The notes beneath the pieces were generated by a model. That model searched no databases and was not told the DNA's origin. It saw only the letters and a program-made list of their open reading frames with translations. A program made the position numbers and the translations under genes. This document shows, piece after piece, positions 6,424 to 43,419 of a stretch of DNA of 64,000 nt (position 1 is its first letter; each line of letters starts with the position of its first letter). Source of the stretch: Candidatus Woesearchaeota archaeon (lineage in GTDB: Archaea > Nanobdellota > Nanobdellia > Woesearchaeales > JABIAG01); NCBI GenBank assembly GCA_018653365.1, contig JABIAG010000001.1, positions 390,951-454,950 on the forward strand, in the 5' to 3' direction.

Positions 6424-6430
6424 GGTAAAA

Positions 6431-8257: not shown

Positions 8258-8274
8258 AGAATTTTTGCGAAACC

Positions 8275-8282: not shown

Positions 8283-8308
8283 TAATTCATCAGTTTAAGC
8301 TTATATTA

Positions 8309-8335: not shown

Positions 8336-8338
8336 AAA

Positions 8339-8986: not shown

Positions 8987-10176
8987 GCAATCAAGACGAA
9001 AAGAAAAAACTAGTAAAAAAGGTCGAAGAATTGTTAAAAGGTTCTCCAGTAGTAGGAATCGTAAATATGCACGCACTTCCAACAGCACAATTACAAAGAA
9101 TGAGAGAAAAATTAAGAGGAAGTGTTGACCTATTCTTAACTAAAAAACGTCTTATTAGATTTGCACTAGAAAATGTAAAAGCCGAAAAAAAAGGAATTGA
9201 AGGACTAGAAGAATTCTTAAAAGGAATACCTGCATTATTACTCTCTAACGATAACCCATTCAAAGTTTTCTCAGTATTACAAAAAAATAAATCAAAAGCA
9301 GCTGCAAAAGGTGGCCAAATCGCACCAAATGACATAAAAATCCCTGCAGGAATGACACAATTCACTCCTGGACCGATCATAAGTGAGCTAGGTGCATTTG
9401 GACTAAAAACCAAAGTATCTGACGGAAAAATCGAAATACTTGAAGATGCAGTTGTAGTAAAAGAGGGTGAAGAAATAACCCAAGAAATCGCAGGATTACT
9501 TTCTAAAATGGGAATAGAACCAATGGAAATTGGCCTAGATTTAGTAGCAGTTTACGAAGCAGGACAAATATACAAAAAAGACGTACTTGCAATCGATGAA
9601 ACTGAATACGCAAACAATTTCACACAAGCACAAAGTTGGGCATTTAATCTAGCTGTAGAAGCCGGAATTATGACCACAGAAACAACAGAATTAATGATAC
9701 AAAAAGCAGCTCGAGAAGTAAAAGCTCTAGCTTTAGAAGCTAATATTTTAACTGATGAAACAAAAGAAGAAATCTTAGCAAAAGCAGAAGCACATGGACA
9801 AGCAGTTGGAAAAGATCTAAACTTGCCTGCTAAAGATGCAGTTAAAGAAGACAAACCTGAAGAAGCAAAGAAAGAAGAGCCAGTAAAGGAAGATCCTAAG
9901 GAAGAACCTGCAAAAGAAGAGAAAAAAGAAGCAGTTGAAGAACCTAAAAAGGAAGAAGCAAAAGAAGAAGCTAAAGTAGAAGATGTTAAGCCTGAAGAAG
10001 TAAAAGAAGAACCTAAACCTGAAGCACCAGTTGAAGAAGCTAAAACAGAAGAAAAACCTGTTGAAGAAAAAAAAGACGAAACCGATGAAAAAGTAGCAGG
10101 GATGGTAGATGCATGGAAGGATAAAGATAAACCTAAACCAACTGCAGAAGATATTATTAAAGACGCAAAAGAATAA
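8983..10176 (+). CDS. rpl10: Large subunit ribosomal protein L10/P0 (uL10) with long Lys/Glu-rich C-terminal tail
   Basis: [38 protein letters not shown]; position between L1 and L12. Confidence 0.93.
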
Positions 10177-25600: not shown

Positions 25601-27366
25601 GATCTTTCAAATATTTTTTTAATTAGTTTAAAATAGTACTCAAGAACTTCTTTATTCTTGTTTGAGGCATATAAATCCCTATGGTTTATGTATCCCTCTG
25701 CAAGTGAAAAACCCAATAACCGCATAAATTCTTCATTAATTCTTATTTTAGGAAATGAACTTTTATCAGACGAAATTCGCGTTATTTGTTTAAATATGTC
25801 TGTTTGTTTTATTTTAATTTGTTCTGTTAACCTGTTAAGTATTTTAAGTTTAAACTTGTATTCGCCGTTCAGTGCAGATCTTAATTGAGAATAAGAAAGA
25901 TCTTCTTTGAACTGTTTTTCCCATAAATCTTTTATTGATCCAAACTTTTTTATAATACTATTTTTAAGTTGTATTCGAAACAAACTATTTATTTCAGCAA
26001 AGCCTGTTTCAGGATAGTTCTTATATGTGTATTTAATTAATTCTTCATTTTTAAGTTCTTTAAATTTATTTTTTCTGATAAGTGCAATGAAGTCACCTTT
26101 TTTAAATTTGATTGCTTCTTTCCAACATAATTCTGAATTTTGAATTGTGAGAAACTTGTGGTTTTTTGTGCAAGCAATTTTTCTTCCTAAATTGCTTTCA
26201 ATTTTTAAAAGTTGTTGTTGGTTTCTAGTTTTGAATTTGTTTAATATTGTCTCATTACTTAACTTTAAATTATTTAAACTTTGTACTTTTTGTTTTTTTA
26301 GATTTTTAATCTCAATCCATTCACCGTTAGAATTTAATATTTTTGTGTTACCTTCAAGACAAACCACAGCCTTAAGCTTACCGGCTTTCAAATTATTTTC
26401 TAATTTAAACCTGTGTTCTTTAGATAAACTGCCATGATGGGCACCGATAAGACTGGTTGCATCATCACCTTCTAAAGTATAATTTTTAGGAAACTTATCC
26501 TTTAAATGATGAACTACCCTTTCCGTAGCAGCCCGAGTGTTAGTAAAAATTAAGGTTGTTCTATGTTTTTGAATTAGATCATCTATTAATTCATACATTT
26601 TTTGATGTAAATTTTCCTGAGAAATATTTATTAAATCCTTAACAGGACTAATAACCTGAAAATCATACTCTTTAATGAATTGGACATCAACAATCTTACA
26701 CTCGCGAGTTCCAACTAAAAATTCAGCAATACTTTCTAAAGGCGCAACAGTTGCGGAGAGCCCAACTCTGGTTAAACCTGGAGCAAGATATTGTAATCTT
26801 TCTAATGACAAAGAAAGATGCACTCCTCTCTTGTTTTCAGCTAAACTATGAATTTCATCAACAATACACCACTGTACACTACGAAAGTTTTCTCTAAACT
26901 TTGGAGAAGAAAGCATGATGGCTAAAGATTCAGGGGTGGTGATCAATATGTGGGGAGGACTTTTAGCAAGTTTAGCCCGTTCATACTGAGTGGTATCTCC
27001 TGTTCTTAACCCAACTCTCACCCCTTTATTCTTCATTTCTTCTAAAGGTTCAAGAAGATTTTTTTGAATATCATTAGAAAGAGCTTTAAGCGGTGAAAGA
27101 TAAACACAATAAATTTTATCTTCTAATAACTTTTTTTCTTCAAGATCTATAAGTTCATTTAAAATAGCACCAAAAGCAGAAAGTGTTTTTCCTGAACCTG
27201 TTGGAGCTGAAACTAAAACGTTTTCACGACTATGAATAGTGTAAATAGAATACTCTTGCGGAAGAGTAAAATCTTTAAATTTAGTAAAAAACCATTTTTT
27301 AAAAGTAGGATTTAAAATATTAATGATCCTTTTTTTTGGAACTGGTTTGGTTAGGAAGGTTGCCAT
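22636..27366 (-). CDS. lhr: Lhr-like DEAD/DEAH-box helicase containing an intein
   Basis: SAPTGSGKTLSAF, VDEIHSLAENKRG, LSATV, exteins KAVV|CSTSLELGIDIGYVDLVICLGSPKSVSRVLQRAGRSGH. Confidence 0.93.
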   Translation of the reverse strand: MATFLTKPVPKKRIINILNPTFKKWFFTKFKDFTLPQEYSIYTIHSRENVLVSAPTGSGKTLSAFGAILNELIDLEEKKLLEDKIYCVYLSPLKALSNDIQKNLLEPLEEMKNKGVRVGLRTGDTTQYERAKLAKSPPHILITTPESLAIMLSSPKFRENFRSVQWCIVDEIHSLAENKRGVHLSLSLERLQYLAPGLTRVGLSATVAPLESIAEFLVGTRECKIVDVQFIKEYDFQVISPVKDLINISQENLHQKMYELIDDLIQKHRTTLIFTNTRAATERVVHHLKDKFPKNYTLEGDDATSLIGAHHGSLSKEHRFKLENNLKAGKLKAVVCLEGNTKILNSNGEWIEIKNLKKQKVQSLNNLKLSNETILNKFKTRNQQQLLKIESNLGRKIACTKNHKFLTIQNSELCWKEAIKFKKGDFIALIRKNKFKELKNEELIKYTYKNYPETGFAEINSLFRIQLKNSIIKKFGSIKDLWEKQFKEDLSYSQLRSALNGEYKFKLKILNRLTEQIKIKQTDIFKQITRISSDKSSFPKIRINEEFMRLLGFSLAEGYINHRDLYASNKNKEVLEYYFKLIKKIFERSPWKKINQNGTTTLGLTSSFLVNFLENLGFIKGRKSRISKLPSFIFRLKKECVFEFLSGYLDGDGYLEVKNNRVYSTGFCTTSKVLAEDISKLLLRENIISSIRSRYCDEFTQVNGRTIHKKGWFYTVVVIGGESLRTFAKHIHPARNKLKHLKEVLELNGYTNIDVIPNIKKELKSLRLKTTLSTYKLQKEGLNPAKYELGTRNISRKQLNKLLTKYKTKESLLNSLKDSDIFWDKIKKINIIKPSKYVYNIEVNNTHNYIANGFITKNCSTSLELGIDIGYVDLVICLGSPKSVSRVLQRAGRSGHSLNKKTKARLIVLDRDDLIECSVMLKSALEKKIDRIHIPTNALDVLAQHIVGMAVEQDWDENELFNVIKKSYCYKDLSRKDFDEILSYLAGEYVSLESRYIYAKIWRNNKKLGKKGRMTRVIYMTNIGTIPDETAIKVKIGDSFIGTIDEGFLERLKPGDIFVLGGDIYQFKFARGTTIQVKGSISRPPTVPSWFSEQLPLSFDLATDINRFRGLMQEKLESCSKKDILDFIHDYLYVDSKAAEAIYKYMKEQFDFCNTLPSNKKILIEHYDKDDEKKIIFHTLFGRRVNDCLSRAIAFSISLTQKRDVEVGISDNGFYISFNKPINVTAVLEQLNTENIEKVMKHAIEKSEVYRRRFRHCAMRSLMILRNYMGRSKQVGKQQMASTILMKALRELNPDFSILKEARREVLEDLMDIENTKAVLKRIEDKQLKIEEIHTKIPSPFAFNLVLQGHLDILKMEDKIEFLKRMHSMVLAKISLSRNKPNVAKRLFNDSEQVIRDKSNLTDQAIESFRSYQKKLDPVQQRLIDKTRTLRRIPISSRKELIKILTEKLPIKKVSSYFIDGFQQYKKEIMRDWPKELVDFLISYINKREKFDFDKYFKSIADSPDTQKSLKKEALITNIQLTARRQKWEDELKYELIDAISKKQVSKETKKFVKQFIKETMPKYVSDDLFFFLKEL
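24793..26361 (-). other. Intein with LAGLIDADG homing endonuclease (523 aa) in the Lhr helicase
   Basis: Starts CLEGNTKILNSNG, block B CTKNHKF, LLGFSLAEG and FLSGYLDGDG endonuclease motifs, ends VYNIEVNNTHNYIANGFITKN|C. Confidence 0.93.
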
Positions 27367-28351: not shown

Positions 28352-31300
28352 ATGAAAGACAATAACCTATGGTTTCATGTCTCTGTATTGCTAGTACTTA
28401 TTATATTTCTAGTTTCATTTGGAACACACCTAAACTTCGTCGGTAAGACTACTCATATACTTGGAATGTTTGTGGATGGAGAGTTCCAAGATAATGTAGA
28501 TAAATGGTACGAATCTAATAAAGTATACTTGTGGAGTCCATCCTATAATGTGAACCTTCACGGAGTTGCGTTGTCTGGAAACGTATCTGGAACAGGAGAG
28601 GTCAAAACATATTTAGTTCATGAACAAGAACAATATCTGATAAATTCTTTCACCGTAGATAATGAGGTAGTACGTTTTGATGAATCCTGCACAGAAACCT
28701 GTGATTTAGGGGGGTTAGAATCTAAAAAATATTTGCTAAGATTTGAAATAGCTGGAGATGTACGTTACCAAATAAATTCTATTAAGTATTCAAGTAGCTC
28801 AATTATTGGACAAGAAGAAATCGTAGACCGTTTCTCCCCAACAACACCCGTTGAAGAATTAGTTGATGATTTAGTTCTTGAACTTGAGGGAACTGAAAAA
28901 GCAATCCCTGAAGACATAACTGTTAGTTTTAAGAATGAATTGGGATATGAATTGTCTGCCCAAAAAACAAAAAGACAAGACGGCAAGTTTGACTTGGTAT
29001 TTGGCGAAGAAGCTCCTGCATTCGGAGCAGCATCTGAAAGTCCAAAATCAAAAGTAACTGTAAAAGGATTGACCAAATCAGTAAATGCAAAGCTGGGCAC
29101 TCTTGAAGGAAAAAATACAGAAGTTTTTGCAATGGATCACGTAACCGTGGACGAAGCAATAGTTACACTAACAAAGACTGGCGAAGTAAACGCGATACAG
29201 AAATGTGACGAGTTTGACGTAACTGGATTTAGTTGTAATTCTGGCTGGTATGAAACTAATCTTGACTTCACAGATAATGGGGCCACCATAACATTCACAG
29301 TTAATTCTTTTAGTGGATATGCGGGAATAAATTCATCATCACAAACTAATTCTGAATGGATAATGCAAGGAAGATTCTTAAATCATACTGGTTATTATCC
29401 TGAATCACTGAATATATCTTCATTAAGTAATATGTGGACATATTCTACGGGAAGTTCTTTATCTGAAGGGCCTGCAATAAAAGATGGCGTTGCATACTTA
29501 CCTGCAAATGATCAAAAATTACACGCAATAAACTTAACAGACGGTGAAAAAATTTGGGAGGTACCTCTGGTAACCTCTTCACAAGCAAGACCTGCATTGG
29601 TAAATGGAGTACTTTATTTTGGAAGTGCAACGGGAATATTCTATGCAATAAACATAACCGATCAATCAGAGGTATGGAATTTTTCATCACCAAACCAGAT
29701 AAGAACTAGTGCTGCAGTTGTTGACGGAAAAGTGTTCTTTGGATCAACAATGGAAGAGTACTTTGCACTAAATCAAACAAACGGAGAACAAATCTGGAAC
29801 AATTCACACAGTGTTGGTGTTGGAGGCGCTTCATCCTCCCCAGGATATAGCGACGGAATGATCTTTTATGGAAGTAGGGGAAGAAAGTTTTATGCAGTAA
29901 ATGCAACAAATGGGGAACAAATCTGGAATCAAAGTGGTTACGGATATGATTTAGCCAGTACCCCCCTAATTGTTAGAGACGAAGTTTTTTTTGGTGCTTA
30001 CTTACAGGTATACTCATATAATAAAACCAATGGGGATTTAATCTGGAATTTTTCTAAAAGTAGTAATTATTTTCTTGCAGGCCTGGCAACAGATCAAGAA
30101 AAAATTTATGCAGGTTCTTATGATGATAAATTATATGCATTAAATATAACAAACGGTGAACAAGTATGGAACTTCTCAGCCGGAAATAACATTTACGCAA
30201 CAGCAACAACAACACCAACAGAGGTAATTTTAGCAGCAAACAATTCAGTGTTTATTATTAATTCAACAACAGGAGAACAAATCTGGAATTACACAATACA
30301 CGATACAACTCAAGCACAACCCGCGATTGTGGATGGAAACTTGTTTGTGGCATCAGAAAATGGCGATTTATATGCGTTTGGAACTGTTATTGATTACACT
30401 CCTGATACAACTTCATACAATCAATCTTCAGAAAACCAATCAGAATGGTGGATGTTTGGAAAATATTTGAATCACACAAGTTGGGATGGAGTAAGTTATC
30501 CAACTGTGAGTGGATTGAACCGAGCTAATTTTACAGCGACAAATAATTTTTATAGCGGAATAGCCGTTGCTGAAGGCGCAGTATATGCTGGAAGCTGGGA
30601 TAAAAACGTATATCGGTTTAATGCAACTAATATTTCCCTGACTGAAACGAGTTTTTTAACTGGAGGAGTCATTTATACTTCTTCGCCAGTTATTGTTGAG
30701 GGTTTTGTTTATGTTGGAAGTGATGATGGTCGTATTTATCAATTAAATTCTAGTACTATGGTACAACATGCTAATTTTACTACCGGGAACCAAGTGCGTT
30801 CCAGTCCTGCTGTTGCTAATGGATATGTTTATGTTGGAAGTAATGATCATAATGTTTATCAATTGAATGCAAGTAATGTTTCTATACAATATGCGAATTT
30901 TACTACTGGGGGAACTGTTTATTCTAGTCCTGCTGTTGCTAATGGCTACGTTTATATTGGAAGTGCGGATAATAATGTTTATCAATTAAATGCGAATAAT
31001 GTTAGTATTCAGTATGCTAATTTTACTACGCCGGACCAACAATATTCGGGACCTGCTGTTGTTGATGGATTTGTTTACGTGGGAGGTTCAGATTTTAGCG
31101 AAACAACAGGTCATATTTTTAAATTGAATGCGAGTAATATTTCCATACAATCTTCTAACTTTACCGTCTTAAATGGGATTTTTACTTATTCATCCCCCAC
31201 AATTGTTGAGGACTCAATTTACATTGGAAATACTGATGGAACCATTTATCAAATAAATAAAACAACTATGAATCAAACAGCTAATTTTACTTCTGGAGAC

Positions 31301-34300
31301 AGCATTCAATCAGCACCTGCTGTTGCGGACGGATTTGTTTATGTTGGAAGCAATGATTATAACGTTTATCAGTTGAATTCCAGTACTTTAGTACAGTATG
31401 CCAATTTTACAACGGGGGGGATTGTTTTTTCTTCTCCTGCGGTTGCTAATGGTTATGTATATGTGGGGAGTGCGGATGATAGTTTGTATCAACTTTTAGC
31501 AAGTAATATTAGTTTAGGGAATGCAGTTGCAATTGATTCTTTAGTAAACATAACCCTTACATATCCAACAACCAATATTAACGTAACACAAAATGAATGG
31601 TTTAATGTTACTTTGAATGCAAGTTGCATACAAGGGAATTGCGGAGAATCCAATGTTAGTTTACGTAATGGAATAACGTATTTAACTTATTTGGGGGAGA
31701 CGTCGAGCGATTATGGAACTTCTATTGTTGAGACTAGTGATGGTGGTTTTGTCGTAACGGGTGACACTCTTTCTTATGGGGGGGTGGGTGGTGATCTGTT
31801 ATTATCCAAGTTTGATAGTTCTGGCAATGAATTGTGGACTAAAAGTTTGGGAGGAGATTCTAGTGAGAGGGGCTATAGTGTTGTTGAGACTAGTGATGGT
31901 GGTTTTATTGTTACAGGCCATACTTACAGTTATGGTGGTAGCGATTATGATGTTTTGTTAGTTAAGTTTAATAGTTCTGGGGCTGAACAGTGGACAAAGA
32001 GTTTAGGAGGAAGTAGTTCTGAGAAAGGCTTTGATGTTGTTGAGACTAGCGAGGGTGATTTTGTTGTTACAGGGTCCACTCAGAGTTATGGTGATGGTGG
32101 AGATAGTATTTTGTTAGTTAAGTTTAATAGTTCGGGGGTTGAACAGTGGACAAAGAGTTTAGGGGGAAATAATAACGATGTGGGTAGAAGTATTGTTGAG
32201 ACTAGTGATGGTGGTTTTGTCGTAACAGGTTATACTCAGAGTTATGGTGATGGTGGAGTAGATGTCTTGTTAGCTAAGTTTAACAGTTCGGGTAATGAAT
32301 TATGGACTAAAAGTGTGGGCGGGGCATCTGTTGAATGGGGATATGATGTTATTGAAATTAGTGGTGGTTTTGTTGTAACAGGTTATACTCATAGTTATGG
32401 AAGTAGTGATGCAGACGTTTTATTAATTAAGTTTGATAGTTCAGGTAATGAATTATGGACTAAGTATTTGTCGGGGAATAGCGATGATGAAGGCCACGCC
32501 GTTGTTGAGGCTAGTGATGGCGGTTTTGTTGTAACTGGACGTACTAAGAGTTATGGTGGTATAGATATTGATGTTTTGTTAGTTAAGTTTGATAGTTCGG
32601 GTAATGAATTATGGACTAAGAGTCTGGGTGGAGGACTGACCGATATTGGGGAGTCTATTATTGAGACTGATGATAAAGGGTTTGTCGTTTCTGGCTCTAC
32701 AAGTAGTTATGGGGGAAGCAGTGCAGATATATTGTTAGTTAAGTTTGATCATTTAGGAAATGTTGAGGGACTAGAAAATATAGTTAGTGAGAGTGCGTAT
32801 TCTTCTTCTTATTCTGTAAGTGCAGTGACAAACATCACGGCAGAATCAGACGAGACTGTGGCTGAATCTGATGAAGATGTGACTGAATTGGATGAAACTG
32901 CAGTTTGGGAAAGAGTTCAGGTGGGTTATCCCTTAGTTCATGTTGGATCTAATGTTACTCTGTATACAAACAAATCAAATAATCCTAGCACTATATCTTT
33001 AAACAGTGGTGAATCAGAATTGGTTGTTTTTTATGTGAATGCGACTGGGAACAATATGTCTACTTATGAAATATTTGGTATTGTTAATTTAACTGACAGT
33101 TTAAATATTAATTCCCAAACATCTAAAATAAATGTTACAATCTTAACGGTAGTTGATACGATATTACCGAATGTTACTTTATCTTTGCCTGTTAATGAAA
33201 CTAATACAACCGATACCACAATATACTTTGCTGGTAATGCAAGTGATGAAACTGCATTAGATAATGTTAGTTTAATGTTAAATGGAGAATATAATTTTAC
33301 TAATTCTACTGGATTAATAAATGGAAGTTATAATATATCTTTTACTTTTGCACAAACTAATGCTACTTACTTATGGGGCTTAGAAGCGTGTGATACTAGT
33401 GGAAATTGTAATACAACAGAAAATAGAACTTTGTGGACTTATTATGATCCTCAACCAATTGCAATGCAATCATCAGAAAATGAAACTGAATGGTGGATGT
33501 TTGGAAAATATTTAAATCATACTTCTTGGGATGGAGTAAGCTATCCAACAATAAATGGATTGAATCGGGCTAATTTCACCTCATCGAGTAATTTTCATGC
33601 GGGTGCAGCTGTTGTTAACGGTTTTGTTTATGTTGGAAGTTATGATAATAATGTTTATCAGTTGAATGCTTCGAATATTAGTATTCAATATGCTAATTTT
33701 ACAACAGGTCATTTTGTGCTTTCGAGCCCAGTAGCGGGTGGTGGTTTTGTTTATGTTAGTGGTTTCGATAATTATACTTATCAGTTGAATGCTTCAAATA
33801 TTAGTCAACAAGTTGCTAATTTCACAACAAACTATCGTGCTTTCGTTCCGGTAGTTGCTAACGGATATGTTTATTTAGGTAGTAACGATCATAATGTTTA
33901 TCAGTTGAATGCTTCGAATATTAGTCAACAAGTTGCTAATTTCACAACAGGCCATGAAGTTTGGTGGAGCCCTGCTGTTGCTAATGGTTATGTTTATGTT
34001 GGAAGTTATGATAATACGGTTTATCAATTGAATGCTAGTAATATCGGCCAACAAGTTGCTAACTTTACGGGGGGGGGTGCTTATTCTTCAGCTCCGGTTG
34101 TTGTTGATGGTTTTGTTTATGTTGGCGGGGCTAAATTTTATCAGTTAAACGCTTCGAATATTAGTATTCAATATGCTAATTTTAGTACTGGAGGCAGTCT
34201 TACTTCTAGCCCAGCTGTTGTTGATGGTTTTGTTTATGTTGGATGCGAAAACAATGACATTTACCAATTGAATGCTTCAAATATTAGTATTCAATATGCC

Positions 34301-37300
34301 AACTTTACATCGGGTGATAGAATTTATGCTCCTAGTGTGGCTGATGGCTTTGTTTATGTTGGAAGTATGGATGACAACATTTATCAGTTAAACGCTTCGA
34401 ATATTAGTATTCAATATGCTAATTTTACAACTGGAAATAATGTTTATGCAACTCCTGCTGTTGCTAATGGTTATGTTTATGTTGGGAGTTGGGACGATTC
34501 GTTTTATCAGTTGTTAGCAAGTAATATAAGCCAAGGAAATGCTGCTGCAATAGTTGATACAACCTTGCCTAATGTTACTTTAGAAGCTCCAATTAATGAA
34601 ACGAATACTACCGATACCACAATATACTTTGCTGGTAATGCAAGTGATGAAACTGCATTAGATAATGTTAGTTTATTATTGGATGGAGAGTATAATTATA
34701 CTAATTCTAGTGGATTAGTGAATGGTAGTTACAATATATCTTTTACTTTTGCACAAGATAATGTCACTTACTTATGGGCATTAGAAAGTTGTGACACAAG
34801 TGGGAACTGTAATACTACTGAGAACTTTACTTTGTATACGCATTATTATGTTGAACCCCCTACTGTTTACAATCAATCATCAGAAAACGCAACCGAATGG
34901 TGGATGTTTGGGAAATTCTTAAATCATACTAGTTGGGATGGAGTAAGTTATCCCACAGTTAGTGGATTGAATCGGGCTAATTTTACGACAGGCAATTTTG
35001 TTTATTCTAGTCCTGCTGTTGCGAATGGTTTTGTTTATATTGGGAGTTATGATAATAATGTTTATCAGTTGAATGCTTCAAACCTTTCAATACAGTATGC
35101 TAATTTTACGACAGGGGGTCTTACTTCTTCTTCACCTGCAGTGGTGAACGGTTTTGTTTATGTTGGAAGCAGAGATGACACACTTTATCAGTTGAATGTC
35201 TCTAATATCAGCCAACAAATTGCGAACTTTACTACGGGGGGGGATATTGATTCCAGTCCTGTTGTTGCGGATGGTTTTGTTTATGTTGGAAGTGATGATA
35301 ATAATCTTTATCAGTTGAATGCAAGTAATGTTAGTATACAATATGCTAATTTTACAATCAGTCAGGATGTTTCCTCTATTCCTGCTGTTGCTAATGGTTT
35401 TGTTTATGTTGGGGGAGTTGATTCTTATGTTTATCAATTGAATGCATCTAACATTAGTCAACAGTTTGCTAACTTTTCAACGTCCGGCATCGTTCTTTCC
35501 AGTCCTGCTGTTGCGGATGGTTTTGTTTATATCGGAAGTTTTGATGATAAGACTGTTTATCAGTTGAATGCTAGTAATATTAGTATTCAATATGCTACTT
35601 TTATAACTGGAGGAACTGTTAAGTCTAGTCCTGTTGTTGCGGATGGTTTTGTTTATATTGGGAGTTATGATAATAATACTTACCAGTTGAATGCTTCAAA
35701 CATCAGTATTCAATATGCTAATTTTACGACAGGGGATGACATTCATTCTAGTCCTACGGTTGCGAATGGTTTTGTTTATGTTGGGAGTTATGATAATAAT
35801 CTTTATCAGTTGAATGCAAGTAACGTTAGCATACAATATGCTAATTTTTCAATTGGCTTAGATGTTTTTTCTAGTCCTGCGGTTGCAAATGGATATGTTT
35901 ATTTGGGCATTGGTTATGGCGTATACCAATTATTAGCAAGTAACATAAGCCAAGGAAATGCTGCTGCAATAGTTGATTCAACTTTGCCTAATGCTACTCT
36001 GGAAGCTCCTGTTAATGAAACCAATACTACTTCAACTGTTGTTTATTTTGCTGGTAATGCAAGTGATGAAACTGCATTAGCTAATGTTAGTTTATTATTG
36101 GATGGAGCGTATAACTTTTCTAATTCAAGTGGATTGGTGAATGGTTCGTATAATATATCTTTTACCTTTGCACAAGATAATGCAACTTACTTGTGGGGAT
36201 TAGAAGCATGTGATACAGGTGGCAATTGTAATACTACTGATAATTACACTTTGATAACATATTATGAAGTTGTTCCTTTGGTCTCAGGAGCAAATAGTTC
36301 ATCACAAAACACTTCAGAATGGAGAATGTTAGGAAGATACCTAAATCATACTGGTTATTATCCTGCAGAAGTTAACATGAGCGGATTTGGACAATTATGG
36401 AACTTTAGTGCAGGAACAGACTTTGTATACGCAACTCCAACAATAGCAAACGGAATGGTATATGCCTCAACAGGATCTACCCAAGGAAGATACACATACG
36501 CACTTAACAAAACAACAGGAAGCATAATCTGGAATTTTACAAGAGAAGAAAATGATTTTGCTTATTCCTCTCCAGCAATAGCAGATGGAAAAGCATTCTT
36601 TGGCTCTGATAGCGCTGTATTCTTTGCAGTTAATGATACTACTGGACTACAATTATGGAATTATACTTTTGGAAGCACACAATATATCCGTGCTTCACCA
36701 ACAGTAGCAAATGGATTAGTCTATTTAGCAACTATAGATGGCGGAGCAGGAGACGGAACATTCTATGCCCTGAACTCAACTAATGGAAGCATAGTTTGGT
36801 TTAAAGCCGGAGGCGAATCCCAAAATTCTCCAACAGTTGCAGACGGACTTGTTTACAATGTAGATGAAAAAATATTATATGCGTATAACGCCACTGATGG
36901 AACGCAAGAATGGAGCTTTAACTTACGAGCAAATTCTCAAACCTTACAGGGAGGGCCTCCAGTATCAAAAGGAATGTTGTACCTGACAACCATCTTAGAC
37001 AATTACACTTATGCATTAAATGCTTCCACAGGAACACAAATATGGAATTTTTCCATGTTAGAAAGAACTGCAAAATATCCTGCAATAGCAAACGATATAC
37101 TGTATGTTACAACAAATAACAATAGAACCTATGCACTAAACGCTACAAACGGAACACAGATCTGGAACTACACCACAAACGGAGGTTTAGGAGCTGCAAC
37201 TGTCAGTGAGGGAGTGGTATTTGTAGGAAGTGCAGATAAATCATTATACGCATTGAACGCTACAACCGGAGTATACATCTGGGAGTCAACACACTCACAA

Positions 37301-40273
37301 AGCACCATAACTGCAGCATCAATAGCAGACGAAATTGTCTACTACGGATCTTATAACGACTTATACGCATTTACAAATGGACAGGATGCTGTAACAGCAG
37401 ACACAACTAACCCAACATTCACAGGAATAAGTAATGTAACAGAATACCTAAATGCAACACTAAACCTAACCATAAATGCAACAGACAATGTAGCAGTAGA
37501 CAGCTTTAGTGTAAATAACACAGATAACTTCAGCATAAACAGTAGTGGATATTTAACCAACGTTACAAACGTATTCGGAGTCTATTGGTTAAACATAACA
37601 GTAAATGATACAGCAGGAAATGAAAATTCAACAATAATTTGGATAAACTATACAACAGCAAATGCTGCACCAACCACAACAACCATTCCAAACGTGTCAT
37701 TCACCTCTGGAGGTTCAACAACAATCAACCTAAGCGCATACTTCACAGACCCAAACAATGATGATTTGAATTTTACCAACGCAACTACAGGAACATTTAC
37801 CAGTACAATAGATCAGGATACAGGAGTTGTAACAATATCATCAAGTACAGAGGGAACACACTACTCAGTATTTACAGCATCAGATAGCTTGTTAACAACA
37901 GATAGTAACAATGTAACCATAACCGTAAGCGCAGCCGGAGGCGGTGGCGGCGGTGGCGGTGGCGGTGGCGGTGACGAACCTACAGAAGAATGTGGTGATG
38001 GAAGTTGTAATGGAGATGAAACCGCATCTAGTTGTCCAAGTGATTGTGATGGAACTTGTGATGCTGCCTGGACCTGTAATAGTTGGAGTAGTTGTACTGC
38101 GGGAACAAGAACAAGAACCTGTGTAGATTTAGAAGGATGTGGAACAACCGATGGAAAACCTGCAGAATCAGAAAGTTGTACTGTAGCACCTCCTCCTTGT
38201 GAAGGGGATGATTGTGAAGTATTCAGTCCTGAAGTAATTGAAAGCGTAGTCACTACTATAAATGAAGCAGACATAGATGGAGTTGAAGGATTCACAACAT
38301 ATACTAAATTTGAAGGCAATAAAACCAACAATACCGAAGTACCTTGTTACGAATCACTACAAGAAGTAACACTTAGCCCAACAAGTGAAGAAATAAGCAT
38401 CCCTCTTGAACAAGGTAGAGAAATAGTAGTAGACCCATTCGAATTAACTTGTGACGGAGGGGCAGTTGACCTAACTGCAGCAGTACCTTATAATTATGAC
38501 GACTTCGAAGTTTATGTATGTCGGGGGGGATATTGCGGACCTGTAAAAGCAGAAAATATATCTGCATTGGTTTGTGAAGATAACTTAGTTCAAGAATATC
38601 TAAGAACTGAAGAGATATATCAACCAAATATAGAAACACTAAATCAAACATTAGTAGAACAAACACTAACTTTAGAATCTGATTCAATAAGTGTTGGTGA
38701 TGTAAGTGCAACATTCCACGGCCCTACTGATAATGTATATGTGGCAATAAAAGGACTTGCTGCAACCATAACCCAACCTGAAAATCCAAGTCTAAAAATT
38801 GTTGGCTTACCAACACAAATCAAAATCGCACCTCCAACAGACCTAAACGTAAGTCTAACACTTCCATACAAGCTAGCAGAGAACATAAATGAGGAAACAC
38901 TCAAAATAGCAGCATTCAGGGGAAGAAATTGGAGATTATTTGATACTACTATAAACAAAGAAACCAAAACAGCAAGTATAGAAGTAGATAATTTAACACA
39001 ATACTTAAACGAAAACAACGAAGCAACATTTGCAATACTCGGAACAATTTGTGTAGATTGTTTAAACGCAAGCCTAAAAGAAGTATATGAATATACTGAA
39101 AATTCAAGCATAGCAGTAGTACTAGTTCATGGATTTGGAAGTACACCTGCATCTTTCCAAGCAATGATCAACGATTTTAGCCTAACAAGACAACCAGTAG
39201 ACGTATGGACCTTTGGATACCCACACAATAAACACATAGAAGATAATGCCGAAGAGTTTTCCGAATTAATGAATGTTAATCTAAACGAATATGAACAAAT
39301 TATCATAGTAGCACACTCTTTGGGAGGGGTAATATCCCAATACGCATTGTTAGATGCAAAAGAAACAAGAAAACCATACTTGAAAAGTGTTGAAGAATTA
39401 GTATTAATGGGCGTACCAAATCAAGGAGTACATTCCTTTGAAAGCTTAAACACGTTTGCTGGTGCATTGGCTAATACCAAATCATTAAACACCTTATTTG
39501 ACTTTAATAGCGTATCAATACAAGATCTAAAGAAAATTAGGGTAATCGAACGAGTAAGAGGCGTAAATTACCGAGTTGTAGCTGGAACCAAACCTTACAT
39601 TTTTCAAGCAGGACCAATAAAAATATCTTCATCACTATTATTTAACTTCACTGAAACAAATGACGGACTACTAACAACAACAAACGTAAGAACAATTGGG
39701 GGATTCCCTGTAGATAAAATATGTGAAGATTACTGGGAATTATACTTAACACACACAGAATTAAATGACGACCAAAAAGCAAGAATGTTAGTCGGAATGC
39801 TGGTTGCAAATGAGGTCGGACTAGATAAAATAGATGTTGGAAGTAAAAGATACCTAAAAATCAATATTCCGGATTGTACAACGGGAGATAAAGTATTCGT
39901 AAGTGGAACACAAAAATTCGAACAAGCAACATCTAATTACGATATTTGTGAAGTAGTAGCAAAAGAAATGTTTGCAACTCCTGGAACCTGTGAAGATAGC
40001 ATACAAAACCAAAACGAAAAAGGAATAGACTGTGGCGGAATTTGTGCACCTTGCTTTAACTTCAAAGACTTTTACCAAAGTACAAAATTCTTATTGTACT
40101 TCATCTTATTGGGAGCAGCAATAATTGGAGGCATGGCAACAGTAAGACACTTTGCACCTGCACATTACATAGAAGAAGAACCAATATTTAACTTTAGATT
40201 TATGAAAGGATTAGACCATGATGTACAAAAAATAACTGAGGAGATAAACAAACTAAAAGAAAAACTAAAATAA
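28352..40273 (+). CDS. Giant surface protein (3973 aa): PQQ-like propeller repeats, DGGF repeats, Ig-like repeats, poly-Gly hinge, TSP1-like segment, alpha/beta hydrolase domain, C-terminal TM anchor
   Basis: Uninterrupted ORF; N-term TM; VYVGS...YQLNASN repeats; AWTCNSWSSCTAGTRTRTC; VVLVHGFGSTPASF and VAHSLGG; C-term FLLYFILLGAAIIGGMATV. Confidence 0.93.
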   Translation: MKDNNLWFHVSVLLVLIIFLVSFGTHLNFVGKTTHILGMFVDGEFQDNVDKWYESNKVYLWSPSYNVNLHGVALSGNVSGTGEVKTYLVHEQEQYLINSFTVDNEVVRFDESCTETCDLGGLESKKYLLRFEIAGDVRYQINSIKYSSSSIIGQEEIVDRFSPTTPVEELVDDLVLELEGTEKAIPEDITVSFKNELGYELSAQKTKRQDGKFDLVFGEEAPAFGAASESPKSKVTVKGLTKSVNAKLGTLEGKNTEVFAMDHVTVDEAIVTLTKTGEVNAIQKCDEFDVTGFSCNSGWYETNLDFTDNGATITFTVNSFSGYAGINSSSQTNSEWIMQGRFLNHTGYYPESLNISSLSNMWTYSTGSSLSEGPAIKDGVAYLPANDQKLHAINLTDGEKIWEVPLVTSSQARPALVNGVLYFGSATGIFYAINITDQSEVWNFSSPNQIRTSAAVVDGKVFFGSTMEEYFALNQTNGEQIWNNSHSVGVGGASSSPGYSDGMIFYGSRGRKFYAVNATNGEQIWNQSGYGYDLASTPLIVRDEVFFGAYLQVYSYNKTNGDLIWNFSKSSNYFLAGLATDQEKIYAGSYDDKLYALNITNGEQVWNFSAGNNIYATATTTPTEVILAANNSVFIINSTTGEQIWNYTIHDTTQAQPAIVDGNLFVASENGDLYAFGTVIDYTPDTTSYNQSSENQSEWWMFGKYLNHTSWDGVSYPTVSGLNRANFTATNNFYSGIAVAEGAVYAGSWDKNVYRFNATNISLTETSFLTGGVIYTSSPVIVEGFVYVGSDDGRIYQLNSSTMVQHANFTTGNQVRSSPAVANGYVYVGSNDHNVYQLNASNVSIQYANFTTGGTVYSSPAVANGYVYIGSADNNVYQLNANNVSIQYANFTTPDQQYSGPAVVDGFVYVGGSDFSETTGHIFKLNASNISIQSSNFTVLNGIFTYSSPTIVEDSIYIGNTDGTIYQINKTTMNQTANFTSGDSIQSAPAVADGFVYVGSNDYNVYQLNSSTLVQYANFTTGGIVFSSPAVANGYVYVGSADDSLYQLLASNISLGNAVAIDSLVNITLTYPTTNINVTQNEWFNVTLNASCIQGNCGESNVSLRNGITYLTYLGETSSDYGTSIVETSDGGFVVTGDTLSYGGVGGDLLLSKFDSSGNELWTKSLGGDSSERGYSVVETSDGGFIVTGHTYSYGGSDYDVLLVKFNSSGAEQWTKSLGGSSSEKGFDVVETSEGDFVVTGSTQSYGDGGDSILLVKFNSSGVEQWTKSLGGNNNDVGRSIVETSDGGFVVTGYTQSYGDGGVDVLLAKFNSSGNELWTKSVGGASVEWGYDVIEISGGFVVTGYTHSYGSSDADVLLIKFDSSGNELWTKYLSGNSDDEGHAVVEASDGGFVVTGRTKSYGGIDIDVLLVKFDSSGNELWTKSLGGGLTDIGESIIETDDKGFVVSGSTSSYGGSSADILLVKFDHLGNVEGLENIVSESAYSSSYSVSAVTNITAESDETVAESDEDVTELDETAVWERVQVGYPLVHVGSNVTLYTNKSNNPSTISLNSGESELVVFYVNATGNNMSTYEIFGIVNLTDSLNINSQTSKINVTILTVVDTILPNVTLSLPVNETNTTDTTIYFAGNASDETALDNVSLMLNGEYNFTNSTGLINGSYNISFTFAQTNATYLWGLEACDTSGNCNTTENRTLWTYYDPQPIAMQSSENETEWWMFGKYLNHTSWDGVSYPTINGLNRANFTSSSNFHAGAAVVNGFVYVGSYDNNVYQLNASNISIQYANFTTGHFVLSSPVAGGGFVYVSGFDNYTYQLNASNISQQVANFTTNYRAFVPVVANGYVYLGSNDHNVYQLNASNISQQVANFTTGHEVWWSPAVANGYVYVGSYDNTVYQLNASNIGQQVANFTGGGAYSSAPVVVDGFVYVGGAKFYQLNASNISIQYANFSTGGSLTSSPAVVDGFVYVGCENNDIYQLNASNISIQYANFTSGDRIYAPSVADGFVYVGSMDDNIYQLNASNISIQYANFTTGNNVYATPAVANGYVYVGSWDDSFYQLLASNISQGNAAAIVDTTLPNVTLEAPINETNTTDTTIYFAGNASDETALDNVSLLLDGEYNYTNSSGLVNGSYNISFTFAQDNVTYLWALESCDTSGNCNTTENFTLYTHYYVEPPTVYNQSSENATEWWMFGKFLNHTSWDGVSYPTVSGLNRANFTTGNFVYSSPAVANGFVYIGSYDNNVYQLNASNLSIQYANFTTGGLTSSSPAVVNGFVYVGSRDDTLYQLNVSNISQQIANFTTGGDIDSSPVVADGFVYVGSDDNNLYQLNASNVSIQYANFTISQDVSSIPAVANGFVYVGGVDSYVYQLNASNISQQFANFSTSGIVLSSPAVADGFVYIGSFDDKTVYQLNASNISIQYATFITGGTVKSSPVVADGFVYIGSYDNNTYQLNASNISIQYANFTTGDDIHSSPTVANGFVYVGSYDNNLYQLNASNVSIQYANFSIGLDVFSSPAVANGYVYLGIGYGVYQLLASNISQGNAAAIVDSTLPNATLEAPVNETNTTSTVVYFAGNASDETALANVSLLLDGAYNFSNSSGLVNGSYNISFTFAQDNATYLWGLEACDTGGNCNTTDNYTLITYYEVVPLVSGANSSSQNTSEWRMLGRYLNHTGYYPAEVNMSGFGQLWNFSAGTDFVYATPTIANGMVYASTGSTQGRYTYALNKTTGSIIWNFTREENDFAYSSPAIADGKAFFGSDSAVFFAVNDTTGLQLWNYTFGSTQYIRASPTVANGLVYLATIDGGAGDGTFYALNSTNGSIVWFKAGGESQNSPTVADGLVYNVDEKILYAYNATDGTQEWSFNLRANSQTLQGGPPVSKGMLYLTTILDNYTYALNASTGTQIWNFSMLERTAKYPAIANDILYVTTNNNRTYALNATNGTQIWNYTTNGGLGAATVSEGVVFVGSADKSLYALNATTGVYIWESTHSQSTITAASIADEIVYYGSYNDLYAFTNGQDAVTADTTNPTFTGISNVTEYLNATLNLTINATDNVAVDSFSVNNTDNFSINSSGYLTNVTNVFGVYWLNITVNDTAGNENSTIIWINYTTANAAPTTTTIPNVSFTSGGSTTINLSAYFTDPNNDDLNFTNATTGTFTSTIDQDTGVVTISSSTEGTHYSVFTASDSLLTTDSNNVTITVSAAGGGGGGGGGGGGDEPTEECGDGSCNGDETASSCPSDCDGTCDAAWTCNSWSSCTAGTRTRTCVDLEGCGTTDGKPAESESCTVAPPPCEGDDCEVFSPEVIESVVTTINEADIDGVEGFTTYTKFEGNKTNNTEVPCYESLQEVTLSPTSEEISIPLEQGREIVVDPFELTCDGGAVDLTAAVPYNYDDFEVYVCRGGYCGPVKAENISALVCEDNLVQEYLRTEEIYQPNIETLNQTLVEQTLTLESDSISVGDVSATFHGPTDNVYVAIKGLAATITQPENPSLKIVGLPTQIKIAPPTDLNVSLTLPYKLAENINEETLKIAAFRGRNWRLFDTTINKETKTASIEVDNLTQYLNENNEATFAILGTICVDCLNASLKEVYEYTENSSIAVVLVHGFGSTPASFQAMINDFSLTRQPVDVWTFGYPHNKHIEDNAEEFSELMNVNLNEYEQIIIVAHSLGGVISQYALLDAKETRKPYLKSVEELVLMGVPNQGVHSFESLNTFAGALANTKSLNTLFDFNSVSIQDLKKIRVIERVRGVNYRVVAGTKPYIFQAGPIKISSSLLFNFTETNDGLLTTTNVRTIGGFPVDKICEDYWELYLTHTELNDDQKARMLVGMLVANEVGLDKIDVGSKRYLKINIPDCTTGDKVFVSGTQKFEQATSNYDICEVVAKEMFATPGTCEDSIQNQNEKGIDCGGICAPCFNFKDFYQSTKFLLYFILLGAAIIGGMATVRHFAPAHYIEEEPIFNFRFMKGLDHDVQKITEEINKLKEKLK
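30420..31530 (+). repeat. Propeller array 2 of the giant protein (about 120-nt units)
   Basis: SEWWMFGKYLNHTSWDG header then repeated GFVYVGS..NVYQLNASN.SIQYANFTTGG. Confidence 0.85.
31715..32765 (+). repeat. Seven tandem DGGF repeats (about 150 nt each)
   Basis: ETSDGGFVVTGYTQSYGDGGVDVLLAKFNSSGNELWTKSLGG units. Confidence 0.9.
33465..34860 (+). repeat. Module: propeller array 3 plus Ig-like domain
   Basis: TEWWMFGKYLNHTSWDG header; VYVGSYDNNVYQLNASNISIQYANFTTG units; LPNVTLEAPINETNTTDTTIYFAGNASDETALDNVSL. Confidence 0.88.
34870..36270 (+). repeat. Module: propeller array 4 plus Ig-like domain, near copy of 33465-34860
   Basis: Same header, units and Ig-like ending, with shared stretches at DNA level. 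Confidence 0.88.
37937..37972 (+). repeat. GGC/GGT microsatellite encoding 12 consecutive Gly
   Basis: ggaggcggtggcggcggtggcggtggcggtggcggt. Confidence 0.95.
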
Positions 40274-40274
40274 T

Positions 40275-40353
40275 CACCCTTTTTTGAGGGGGGTGTTATG
40301 CCAGGAATTAACTTCCCTAAGCTTAACCCGTAAGCAAAAGTGGTTTTTGGCAT
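40275..40353 (+). promoter_or_regulatory. Candidate structured RNA between the giant gene and the next ORF
   Basis: CACCC/GGGTG hairpin (40275-40295), then ATGCCA(40298-40303)/TGGCAT(40348-40353) enclosing GGAA-TTAAC-TTCC and GCTTA-ACCCG-TAAGC hairpins. Confidence 0.4.
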
Positions 40354-40381
40354 TTCATCTCTCCATTTCATACTAACAAAA

Positions 40382-41866
40382 ATGAAAAACAACCTGACAA
40401 TATATGTAAGCATACTTATTTTATTAGTTACACTCTCATTATTTTCAAGCAATTTCGTTGATTTAACCGGACATGTAGTTGGAGATCTAATATTAAAAGA
40501 AAAAGCGTTTGAGGTAAACCAACACTTTTCTGAAACCGGAGTTTACCTTTGGAGTCCGGGGCAAAATGTTTCAGTAAAAGATTTAACCGTGGAGGGTGAA
40601 ATTTACGGAACTGGAAATGTTGAGGTAAGCCTAATAAAAGGTGGACAAAAAGTAACATTACTTAAAAGATCAACATCAAAAGAAGCCGTAGCAGTAGAAG
40701 AATATGTTGAGCTTCCAGAAGGAACCGATATTGGGTTAACACTACAATACGGAACTGGAGATTGGGATTCAGACAATGATGGAATATCCTCATTAACTGA
40801 TGGAATAGACTTTGAACTTAACCCTCTATTTTTCCTTGATATGGACAAGAGATCCCTTTGTACACTCTGGGAAGTATATAGTTTAGAAAAAGCAGATTAT
40901 ACATCCTCTTGCTATGGTGCAACAAGTTGTTGTAACTTTTTAGGACCTAGCTCATCATCATATGGGTGGAACGACGATTTCGTAGTAGTAAGTGGCAATC
41001 CTGGAGTAACAACGAATAATATTGTCTTGGCAAGGCTAGTTTTCTATAATGGCACTCAAGTCTCATATAGTAATTATGACGGACTTTTAGCAAAGTTTGT
41101 AAAACAAGAAATAATAAATAATTTTAATGAAAGTGGCGAGGACATATTTGAATCAAAAAACTATTTGATAAAAGTTGAACTAGCAGAAGACACATTCTTT
41201 GATTTTAAAACAATAAAATACAAAGTAGAAGAAATAGAAGAACAGATTGATGAAGGCGTGATAATGGCAGAAGAATCAGAATCAATTATAATTCCTGAAG
41301 TAGAATCAACCCCCTCTGGTTATAAAATATTAAAAGAAGAACCCGAAGATTACTTTGAAGTAACTTTAGATAAAAGTTATTTGGGAGGATTGCGAATAAA
41401 TACAAAAGACTTGTTAATGTTAGATTTAGAAATCGAACTAGACTTAACAGATTCATACCAAAAAATAACGTTTATAACCGACGAATCTTTAAGTGCAATA
41501 GCTAACCTTAAAATGCCTTTGAACAGGATTGAGGGAAGAAACTTAATCCTAAACGATGGAAAAACAGAAGCAACATATTTAAGAAGTGATGACAAAAACG
41601 CATATTACCGAGCCAACATCGAATTAAACAACTTAAATATTGTACTCTTAGATAAATTAGAAGAACTAGCACCTGAAAAACAAAAAAATAAAGACTGGTC
41701 AGTATACCTTTATTTTATTATTTCATTAGGTGCAGCAGTATGTATTTACTTCTTTGCAGGAGCAGGACAAGACCTAAAAGATTGGGCAGACATACACTTC
41801 AAAAGTTTAGCATTTAAACGAGACATAAAGAAAATAAGAAAATTAAGAAAAAAGTTTGAACAATAA
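40382..41866 (+). CDS. Membrane-anchored surface protein sharing the N-terminal module of the giant protein
   Basis: VYLWSPGQNVSVKDLTVEGEIYGTGNVEVSLI vs VYLWSPSYNVNLHGVALSGNVSGTGEVKTYLV; DWDSDNDGISSLTDG Ca-binding-like; C-term TM. Confidence 0.75.
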   Translation: MKNNLTIYVSILILLVTLSLFSSNFVDLTGHVVGDLILKEKAFEVNQHFSETGVYLWSPGQNVSVKDLTVEGEIYGTGNVEVSLIKGGQKVTLLKRSTSKEAVAVEEYVELPEGTDIGLTLQYGTGDWDSDNDGISSLTDGIDFELNPLFFLDMDKRSLCTLWEVYSLEKADYTSSCYGATSCCNFLGPSSSSYGWNDDFVVVSGNPGVTTNNIVLARLVFYNGTQVSYSNYDGLLAKFVKQEIINNFNESGEDIFESKNYLIKVELAEDTFFDFKTIKYKVEEIEEQIDEGVIMAEESESIIIPEVESTPSGYKILKEEPEDYFEVTLDKSYLGGLRINTKDLLMLDLEIELDLTDSYQKITFITDESLSAIANLKMPLNRIEGRNLILNDGKTEATYLRSDDKNAYYRANIELNNLNIVLLDKLEELAPEKQKNKDWSVYLYFIISLGAAVCIYFFAGAGQDLKDWADIHFKSLAFKRDIKKIRKLRKKFEQ

Positions 41867-41931: not shown

Positions 41932-43419
41932 ATGGTAAAAGGACAAATTATCAGTGGAAGTTTTGAAAACATAATTGCTAGACAAAAATCTGAAGAAGAA
42001 TTTGAAATCGGTGAATTGCTTGTAGCAGAAAACAAAAATAATAAAGTGTTATTACAAGTAACAGATTTAAGCTTTGGAAGCCAAATATCCCAATCCAATC
42101 TTGAACTTATTTCTGGAATGAATCTAGAACAAGGACTAAATACTGAGTTCATGGATCCAGAGTTAAGATTATATAATTTGGCAGTATTGAAAAGTTTATT
42201 AACACTAAAAGACACGCCTAAATCAGCAAAAATAATGCCTGGTTTTTTCTCAGAGGTACGAGAGGTAAAAAAAGAAGACTTAAACTTTGTAACCCCCGCG
42301 AAACCACTATTTGTTGGGAACTTACGTTCAGGAAGTAAAATCTTGGATGTTCCTATTGCATTAAAAGGAGAAGATGTGTTAAGCCATCACGTTTTAATAC
42401 CTGCAACAACCGGGAGAGGAAAATCAAACCTAACTTCAGTAATTTTATGGAATATAATCACCGAAGGATATGCAGGAATGTTAGTTCTAGACCCTCATGA
42501 TGAATACTATGAACGACTAAAATCACACCCAAAAAAGGAACGAATCAAATATTATTCCCCATCTAATGTGCCCTCTGGAGAACGAACTCTTAAAATCAAC
42601 GCAAAACTAGTAAAACCACAACACTTTGAGGGAGTAATTGAATGGAGCACCCCCCAAAAAGAGTGCTTGTCCCTTGCCTACAAAAAATACGGGGAAGAAT
42701 GGATAAAAGAGGTAGTTAACTTAGATAGCTTAGAAAACGTCAACGAAGCAACACTAGCAGTAGTAAAAAGAAGAATAACAGACTTACTGAACATAGTTAA
42801 TGGAACGTGTACAGGCATATTTGACATGCAAGCAGGTGAGACAACAATAAAAGACATCACAAAAGAACTAGAACAGGGCAAAACAGTAATTATTAATACC
42901 TCTTCCTGTTCAGGAAGACAAGAAATACTTGTTGGGTCACTAATAACAACCGAAATATTCAACAAATATAAACATTATAAAATCTCTGGCGAACTTAAAG
43001 AAAAACCGGTTGTCTCAATTGTTTTAGAAGAAGCACCAAGAGTACTGGGAAAAGAGGTCTTAGAAAAAGGCTCGAACATATTCTCAACAATAGCCCGAGA
43101 GGGAAGAAAATTTAAAGTGGGTCTAATAGCCATAACACAATTACCCTCACTCATTCCACGTACAGTTCTAGCTAATATGAATACAAAAATAATTCTGGGA
43201 ATAGAAATGGGGCCTGAAAGAAGCGCAATAATCGATTCCTCGGCACAAGACCTAAGTTCAGACGGTCGTAATATAGCCTCACTTGATAAAGGCGAGGCAA
43301 TAATCACATCTAACTTTGTACCCTTCGCAATACCAGTTAAAATACCTCTTTTTTCCTCATTTATTAAAACAGATGAAATTAAGGAAAAAAAAGACTTTTC
43401 TGGCGTGCATTTAGGTTAG
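41932..43419 (+). CDS. HerA/DUF87-like ATPase
   Basis: [77 protein letters not shown]. Confidence 0.88.

What the first reader, a model, noticed from the sequence alone, without database searches (positions are those of the whole stretch)
28352..40273. 3973-aa membrane-anchored propeller/Ig/DGGF protein ending in an alpha/beta hydrolase
Architecture: TM, N-terminal module, about five propeller domains each begun by a xSEWxMxGxxLNHT header, a 7x DGGF block, three near-identical Ig-like domains, cadherin-like stalk, poly-Gly hinge, CGDGxC.../TSP1-like segment, hydrolase (VHGFGS, AHSLGG), TM and short cytoplasmic tail. Coupling a huge adhesive array to a membrane-proximal lipase-like domain suggests a cell-contact or host-attachment effector. 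Function is inference.
Basis: partly seen in the sequence, partly recalled or inferred. Interest (0 to 1): 0.75.

Follow-up and report, generated by a model that had tools for sequence, protein, structure and literature searches.

The report
Giant archaeal surface protein with lipase
A tiny, probably host-dependent archaeon (Woesearchaeota) carries one of a previously uncatalogued family of giant cell-surface proteins that join a changeable array of sticky modules to a constant lipase-like enzyme beside the membrane, a plausible tool for gripping and chemically attacking or feeding on neighbouring cells.

Summary
The 3973-aa ORF is intact on a 762-kb contig, with one TM at each end, five eight-bladed PQQ/BamB-type beta-propellers, three 78-83% identical Ig-like domains, a poly-Gly hinge, Cys-rich segments and a C-terminal alpha/beta hydrolase. 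One correction: the 'DGGF block' is itself a seven-bladed propeller (CylK-type), so the ectodomain has six propellers and 47 blades. The AlphaFold model of the C-terminal module best matches the lipase BlEst2. The constant part is a roughly 550-600 aa C-terminal module (Cys-rich beta domain + lipase-like hydrolase + Cys motif). It occurs in 47 of 288 genomes of the order (Woesearchaeota), with no comparably strong match outside it in the class and phylum samples. The adhesive part is swapped: propellers, beta-helix/NosD, Laminin_G, Ig. The genome has an oligosaccharyltransferase but no hits to GGGP-synthase, CarS or prenyl-synthase, so it probably depends on foreign lipids. Most likely: a glycosylated, membrane-anchored contact protein presenting an active serine acyl-hydrolase at the cell interface. 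Substrate and host are unknown. New variant of a known kind (giant DPANN surface proteins).

The parts
28352..40273 (+). Whole ORF, 3973 aa giant surface protein
   Evidence: dN<dS between internal repeats
28364..28429 (+). N-terminal TM / signal-anchor (residues about 5-26)
   Evidence: hydropathy maximum 2.48
28430..29341 (+). N-terminal anchor module (residues 27-330), shared with two other giants of this genome, with P0002 and with homologues in other families
29342..30391 (+). Propeller P1 (PQQ/BamB type, 8 blades by repeat count)
30428..31546 (+). Propeller P2 (8 blades)
31670..32776 (+). 'DGGF block': seven 52-aa repeats forming a seven-bladed propeller like that of CylK
   Evidence: PF17164 weak
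33152..33451 (+). Ig-like domain 1 (Big_7)
33473..34537 (+). Propeller P3 (8 blades)
34547..34855 (+). Ig-like domain 2
34880..35962 (+). Propeller P4; AlphaFold model closes as eight four-stranded blades (pLDDT 85)
35972..36271 (+). Ig-like domain 3
36302..37381 (+). Propeller P5 (8 blades; about 33% identical to P1)
37394..37936 (+). Ig/cadherin-like stalk (Big_9, weak)
   Evidence: similar stretches in four homologues
37937..37972 (+). Poly-glycine hinge (12 Gly)
   Evidence: sequence
37991..38221 (+). CGDGxC / TSP1-like Cys-rich segment
   Evidence: sequence by eye; no Pfam hit; matched in one homologue
38324..39067 (+). Pre-hydrolase Cys-rich beta domain; Cys 3332, 3367, 3390, 3395, 3408, 3567 and 3570 nearly invariant
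39068..39886 (+). Alpha/beta hydrolase (lipase/esterase-like)
39317..39319 (+). Predicted nucleophile Ser3656 (AHSLGG)
   Evidence: invariant 36/36 and in all 34 rows of A2; aligned with the BlEst2 elbow Ser
39662..39664 (+). Predicted acid Asp3771 (TNDGLL)
   Evidence: invariant 36/36 and 34/34; aligned with BlEst2 NDG
39752..39754 (+). Predicted His3801 (LTHTEL)
   Evidence: invariant 35/35 (one sequence truncated before it) and 34/34
39989..40054 (+). Juxtamembrane Cys motif (CEDSIQNQNEKGIDCGGICAPC)
   Evidence: short motif widespread in the order
40082..40147 (+). C-terminal TM
40148..40270 (+). Basic cytoplasmic tail (41 aa)
40340..41866 (+). Downstream paralogue without repeats (P0002): N-terminal anchor module + C-terminal TM + basic tail; probable ATG at 40382

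Best explanation
A membrane-anchored, probably heavily N-glycosylated cell-surface protein of an ultra-small woesearchaeotal archaeon. TMs at both ends tether a chain of six beta-propellers and Ig-like spacers that reaches out and binds surfaces of other cells or polymers (inferred). The chain carries, close to the membrane, a disulphide-rich module with an active serine hydrolase of lipase/esterase type (fold and triad shown by computation, activity not shown). It works as a contact-dependent acyl-hydrolase: the array holds a neighbour or acyl-bearing material against the cell, and the hydrolase cleaves ester- or thioester-linked acyl groups at the interface, for scavenging or for altering the partner's envelope. 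In this order the hydrolase module is the constant part and the adhesive part is exchanged between lineages.
For: Triad Ser/Asp/His invariant across diverse homologues at about 24-40% identity. Fold match to BlEst2 lipase (profile E 2.7e-11; Foldseek E 2.4e-8, TMt 0.69). Extracytoplasmic topology: TMs at both ends, conserved Cys pattern, sequons 188 against 68 expected and almost absent from the hydrolase, STT3/AglB encoded. Constant module in 47/288 genomes of the order, near the C-terminus of 600-5100-aa ORFs, with variable N-terminal parts: beta-helix/NosD, Laminin_G_3, Big_9, PQQ. In three or four homologous loci a second alpha/beta hydrolase lies close by; in two (L037, L041) it is co-directional within 25 nt of the giant's stop and has a secretion or lipoprotein leader. 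No hit to GGGP-synthase, CarS-like or polyprenyl-synthase families, with controls positive, consistent with dependence on foreign lipids.
Against: No host, localisation or activity data. Archaeal core lipids are ether-linked, so a lipase would not cut an archaeal host's lipids; the substrate would have to be bacterial or eukaryotic ester lipids, acyl-modified glycans or proteins, or free esters. BamB-type propellers and Ig domains are not proof of adhesion. The hydrolase sits next to the archaeon's own membrane, which also fits self-directed roles. The genome is 94.9% complete, so absences are not absolute.
Confidence: 0.5

Rival explanations
1. Self-directed envelope enzyme: the hydrolase trims or deacylates the archaeon's own glycoproteins or lipids (PGAP1/DUF676-like), and the propeller array is mainly a surface-coat (S-layer-like) structure.
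For: Hydrolase is membrane-proximal on the producing cell; weak PGAP1 and DUF676 similarity; heavy sequon load like a coat protein; other giants share its N-terminal anchor module.
Against: Patchy distribution (47/288 genomes) argues against an essential housekeeping envelope role; the ectodomain is swapped between lineages; neighbouring esterases in some loci suggest use of acyl substrates.
Confidence: 0.2
2. Non-enzymatic recognition: the hydrolase fold is a binding domain in a pure adhesin, as cholinesterase-like domains are in neuroligins.
For: Embedded in an otherwise adhesive architecture.
Against: The full Ser/Asp/His triad is invariant in all 34 aligned sequences while most other positions vary; a binding-only domain should lose triad residues in some lineages.
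Confidence: 0.08
3. Part of a contact-dependent secretion/uptake apparatus, as proposed for nanohaloarchaeal giant proteins: the giant docks a partner and the HerA/FtsK-superfamily ATPase encoded two genes downstream drives translocation.
For: P0002 (shared anchor module) and a HerA-like ATPase (HerA_Thermprot 2.7e-33, CedD 2.4e-22) lie directly downstream on the same strand; nanohaloarchaeal giants with Ig and PQQ propellers have a VirB4/TraG ATPase domain and gene (PMC10266531).
Against: The ATPase is not linked to the giant in 35 homologous loci, apart from one remote partial match; P0003 matches HerA better than CedD; the giant's tail is only 41 aa with no ATPase domain.
Confidence: 0.12
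4. Assembly artefact: genes fused or repeats mis-assembled in a metagenome-assembled genome.
For: Some exact repeats of 60-80 nt exist in the ORF.
Against: Long contig; no exact repeat of 80 nt or more; purifying selection between copies; propellers plus the same hydrolase module recur in other families (L032, L056).
Confidence: 0.02

Closest known systems
SPEARE / giant surface proteins of Nanohaloarchaeota (PMC6642349, PMC10266531)
   Same: DPANN, thousands of residues, mostly extracytoplasmic, C-terminal TM, adhesion domains; the SVXNc_0300 giant also has Ig plus two PQQ-type propellers and an ATPase gene directly downstream.
   Different: Here the enzyme is a lipase-like serine hydrolase outside the cell; there is no cytoplasmic VirB4/TraG-like (or 'restriction') domain, only a 41-aa tail; the ATPase gene is HerA-like, two genes downstream and not conserved in linkage.
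Large extracellular murein-transglycosylase proteins of Woesearchaeota/Pacearchaeota (fam00969, PMC8204110)
   Same: Same archaeal group; proteins up to about 3,000 aa combining a large extracellular protein with an enzyme domain, proposed for attack on or attachment to other cells.
   Different: Enzyme here is an alpha/beta hydrolase; no transglycosylase domain found by Pfam.
BlEst2 lipase (PDB 6wpx/6wpy) and lipase/esterase alpha/beta hydrolases
   Same: Closest solved fold (E 2.4e-8, TMt 0.69); Ser and Asp motifs align; BlEst2 too carries accessory domains.
   Different: About 20% identity; BlEst2 is a much smaller (487-residue entry) enzyme without the adhesive ectodomain; the accessory beta domain here is N-terminal and Cys-rich.
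CylK C-terminal propeller (7fh6) and PQQ/BamB or designed 'Cake' propellers (6tjg/6tjh)
   Same: Sequence homologues of the DGGF block (E 4.5e-19) and of P2-type propellers (E down to 2.6e-79).
   Different: Here they are units in a six-propeller chain; no evidence of PQQ binding or of alkylating enzyme activity.

Membership tests
Alpha/beta hydrolase superfamily, lipase/esterase type | Alpha/beta hydrolase fold | tested here: met
   AlphaFold model pLDDT mostly 85-96 over the core; Foldseek E 2.4e-8 to BlEst2
Alpha/beta hydrolase superfamily, lipase/esterase type | Nucleophile elbow and Ser-Asp-His triad in order | tested here: met
   AHS3656LGG, D3771, H3801 invariant; Ser placed between strand 355-361 and helix 363-377 of the model.
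Alpha/beta hydrolase superfamily, lipase/esterase type | Lipolytic or esterase activity | not testable with these tools
   needs expression and assay
DUF7379 / PGAP1 / DUF676 (Pfam) | Score above the curated cut-off | tested here: inconclusive
   Isolated domain: DUF676 28.4 (cut-off 20.3) and PGAP1 24.6 (24.3) pass, DUF7379 28.9 (33) fails; all three fail in the full-length scan
SPEARE / nanohaloarchaeal giant proteins | Extracytoplasmic adhesion modules with C-terminal TM | tested here: met
SPEARE / nanohaloarchaeal giant proteins | Conserved cytoplasmic VirB4/TraG-like (formerly 'type III restriction') domain | tested here: not met
   tail of 41 aa; no such Pfam or NCBIfam hit in P0001
SPEARE / nanohaloarchaeal giant proteins | Downstream VirB4/TraG-family ATPase gene | tested here: inconclusive
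   HerA-like ATPase two genes downstream here but not linked in homologous loci
Woesearchaeota/Pacearchaeota fam00969 giants | Murein lytic transglycosylase domain | tested here: not met
   no Pfam hit
PQQ/BamB-type beta-propeller | Repeats matching PF13360/PF13570 and closure as a propeller | tested here: met
Woesearchaeales giant-hydrolase family (proposed here) | Constant C-terminal module: Cys-rich beta domain + hydrolase + Cys motif | tested here: met

The most novel reading that the evidence does not exclude
An order-specific family of giant surface weapons or feeding organs: lipid-auxotrophic archaea carry a constant, membrane-proximal secreted lipase behind an interchangeable adhesive ectodomain that selects the partner, and use it to strip ester lipids or acyl groups from bacterial (or eukaryotic) neighbours. 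This would imply that part of Woesearchaeota preys on or scavenges from non-archaeal cells, whose lipids such an enzyme can cut.
Probability: 0.2. Interest if true: 0.8.

Novelty: new variant of a known kind. Interest (0 to 1): 0.57.

Why it matters
How DPANN archaea hold and exploit other cells, and whom Woesearchaeota live on, are open questions. A conserved enzyme module with an intact triad, tied to swappable adhesins, gives one expressible domain of about 550-600 aa that can be assayed directly. Its substrate would point to the partner: ester lipids to bacteria or eukaryotes, glycan or protein acyl groups to an archaeal or self target.

Tried and rejected
Raw count of 195/288 'positive' genomes: rejected, because most are the short CxDGxQN...CGGxC motif (query 349-380), not the hydrolase; the real figure at E<=1e-20 is 47. 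Synteny with the HerA ATPase and GT2: not conserved. Genome-contig search with the deep alignment A2: no pattern conserved enough; done with A3. Attempts to align with wrong frames, a script stopping at a missing file and a script failing after its repeat count were redone. Foldseek hits to DPP4/prolyl oligopeptidases (propeller + hydrolase) looked suggestive, but TM 0.15-0.23 and rmsd above 20 show only the hydrolase aligns. Viral library: only generic alpha/beta hydrolases. Sigma-70/terminator scan uninformative for an archaeon. Literature searches found no description of a lipase-bearing woesearchaeotal giant in the held library.

Full report
OBSERVATION. The frame 28352-40273 (+) is one uninterrupted 3973-codon ORF in contig C1 (762 kb) of a 1.09-Mb, three-contig genome that is 94.9% complete. 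Repeats inside it diverge mostly at synonymous sites: Ig copies have dS 0.55-0.82 and dN 0.12-0.17; propellers P2-P4 have dS 0.84-1.16 and dN 0.24-0.30. No exact repeat reaches 80 nt (in the part of the script that ran before an error). It is a real, selected gene and not a mis-assembled repeat.

ANATOMY. Hydropathy gives one TM at each end. Pfam finds PQQ/BamB propellers (PF13570 2.5e-165, PF13360 2.1e-120) and Big_7 Ig-like domains. The five [ST]EWxMxG[RK][YF]LNHT headers each precede a propeller of about 41-aa repeats. Counting the repeats printed gives eight per propeller, and the AlphaFold model of P4, using only its four sister propellers as alignment, closes into eight four-stranded blades with an N-terminal velcro strand (pLDDT 85, pTM 0.83). 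The header itself is low-confidence and outside the propeller. P2-P4 are about 63-69% identical to one another and are younger duplicates; P1 and P5 are about 33-35% identical. The '7x DGGF block' matches the C-terminal propeller of CylK (PDB 7fh6, E 4.5e-19) and is a sixth, seven-bladed propeller, so the ectodomain has 47 blades. The stalk matches Big_9 only weakly (E 0.009); the TSP1-like call rests on the eye.

HYDROLASE. Residues of about 3573-3845 match several alpha/beta hydrolase families weakly in the full protein and better as an isolated domain. A profile of 34 homologues finds BlEst2 lipase first in the PDB (E 2.7e-11), with the Ser elbow and the NDG Asp aligned. The AlphaFold model of the C-terminal module (mean pLDDT 76, mostly 85-96 in the hydrolase core) also has BlEst2 as best fold match (E 2.4e-8, TMt 0.69). 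Ser3656 and Asp3771 are identical in 36/36 and His3801 in 35/35 sequences (one is truncated before it); all three are invariant in the 34-row alignment. I could not measure triad geometry because model coordinates are not exported.

A FAMILY, NOT A ONE-OFF. A survey of 288 genomes of the same order found strong matches (E<=1e-20) in 47, always near the C-terminus of long ORFs, 600-5100 aa where fetched (my count from the table). The tool's tally of 195 is inflated by a short Cys motif. Named relatives are Candidatus Woesearchaeota and Nanoarchaeota MAGs. In class and phylum samples (281 and 279 genomes) all strong matches (E<=3e-56) lie in the same order; the best outside it is E 9e-13. The constant part is larger than the hydrolase: an upstream Cys-rich beta domain (seven nearly invariant Cys), the hydrolase, and a juxtamembrane Cys motif. 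In contrast the N-terminal parts differ: right-handed beta-helix/NosD, Laminin_G_3, Big_9, or PQQ propellers. Propellers plus this hydrolase recur in at least two other families: L056, and L032, where the reading continues across a frame change into a second ORF and P4-like propellers are 55% identical. A DGGF-like propeller occurs with the hydrolase in L058.

CONTEXT. The N-terminal anchor module occurs in two other giants of this genome (2962 aa with Laminin_G_3, beta-helix and DUF285; more than 2343 aa with Laminin_G_3, open at the contig end) and in the adjacent repeat-less paralogue P0002; these lack the hydrolase. Sequons are 188 against 68 expected, with few in the hydrolase region, enriched 2.3-fold at the median upstream of the hydrolase in 33 homologues, though a few homologues have none. 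An STT3/AglB is encoded. GGGP synthase, CarS-like and polyprenyl synthase families give no hit although controls do, so the organism probably cannot make archaeal lipids itself. In three or four homologous loci a second alpha/beta hydrolase is encoded close by; in L037 and L041 it is on the same strand within 25 nt of the giant's stop and has a secretion/lipoprotein-like leader.

MECHANISM. Shown by computation: topology signals, propeller/Ig array, lipase-type fold with an invariant triad, a conserved module with exchanged ectodomains, and absence of hits to three lipid-synthesis families. Inferred: adhesion, enzyme activity, substrate and use in cell contact. The most economical reading is a contact-dependent serine acyl-hydrolase. 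Archaeal core lipids are ether-linked (established knowledge), so if the substrate is lipid, the source would be bacterial or eukaryotic ester lipids; acylated glycans or proteins remain possible. The main rivals are a self-directed envelope enzyme and a docking part of a translocation system like that proposed for nanohaloarchaeal giants. The HerA-like ATPase two genes downstream recalls the latter, but it is not linked in homologous loci.

KNOWN RELATIVES. Giant DPANN surface proteins are known: SPEARE proteins (PMC6642349), their reinterpretation as VirB4-associated proteins with Ig and PQQ propellers (PMC10266531), and large woesearchaeotal murein-transglycosylase proteins (PMC8204110). 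This protein lacks the defining cytoplasmic ATPase-like domain of the first two and the transglycosylase of the third, so it is not a member of either, but it is of the same general kind. In the held library I found no description of the hydrolase-bearing family; absence from that library is not proof of novelty.

Noticed in passing
window 22636-27366 (-): Lhr-type large helicase interrupted by an intein (Intein_splicing plus LAGLIDADG_3, about residues 344-858, splitting Helicase_C).
   Followed up: no
window 40340-41866 (+): P0002: repeat-less paralogue of the giant's N-terminal anchor module with its own C-terminal TM and basic tail; part of it (129-240) also occurs inside the N-terminal module of the homologue L058.
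   Followed up: partly
window 41932-43419 (+): HerA-like HAS-barrel ATPase (also CedD-like, E 2.4e-22) behind the giant, not linked to it in relatives.
   Followed up: partly
G000 contig C2: 56000-70000 (L111) and 1-9000 (L112): Two more giants in the same genome with the same anchor module but Laminin_G_3, beta-helix and DUF285 ectodomains and no hydrolase.
   Followed up: partly
L037:12067-12984, L041:14998-15783, also L035:6745-7863 and L044:2-862: Second alpha/beta hydrolase (Hydrolase_4 type) close to the hydrolase giant in relatives; secreted or lipoprotein-like and directly downstream in L037 and L041.
   Followed up: partly
L032:7763-7801: The closest architectural homologue reads on across a frame change between two ORFs; could be an assembly indel or a real split.
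   Followed up: partly
L034 (G110 contig C6): A long stretch of N upstream of the hydrolase ORF makes the listed 5151-aa open frame unreliable.
   Followed up: no
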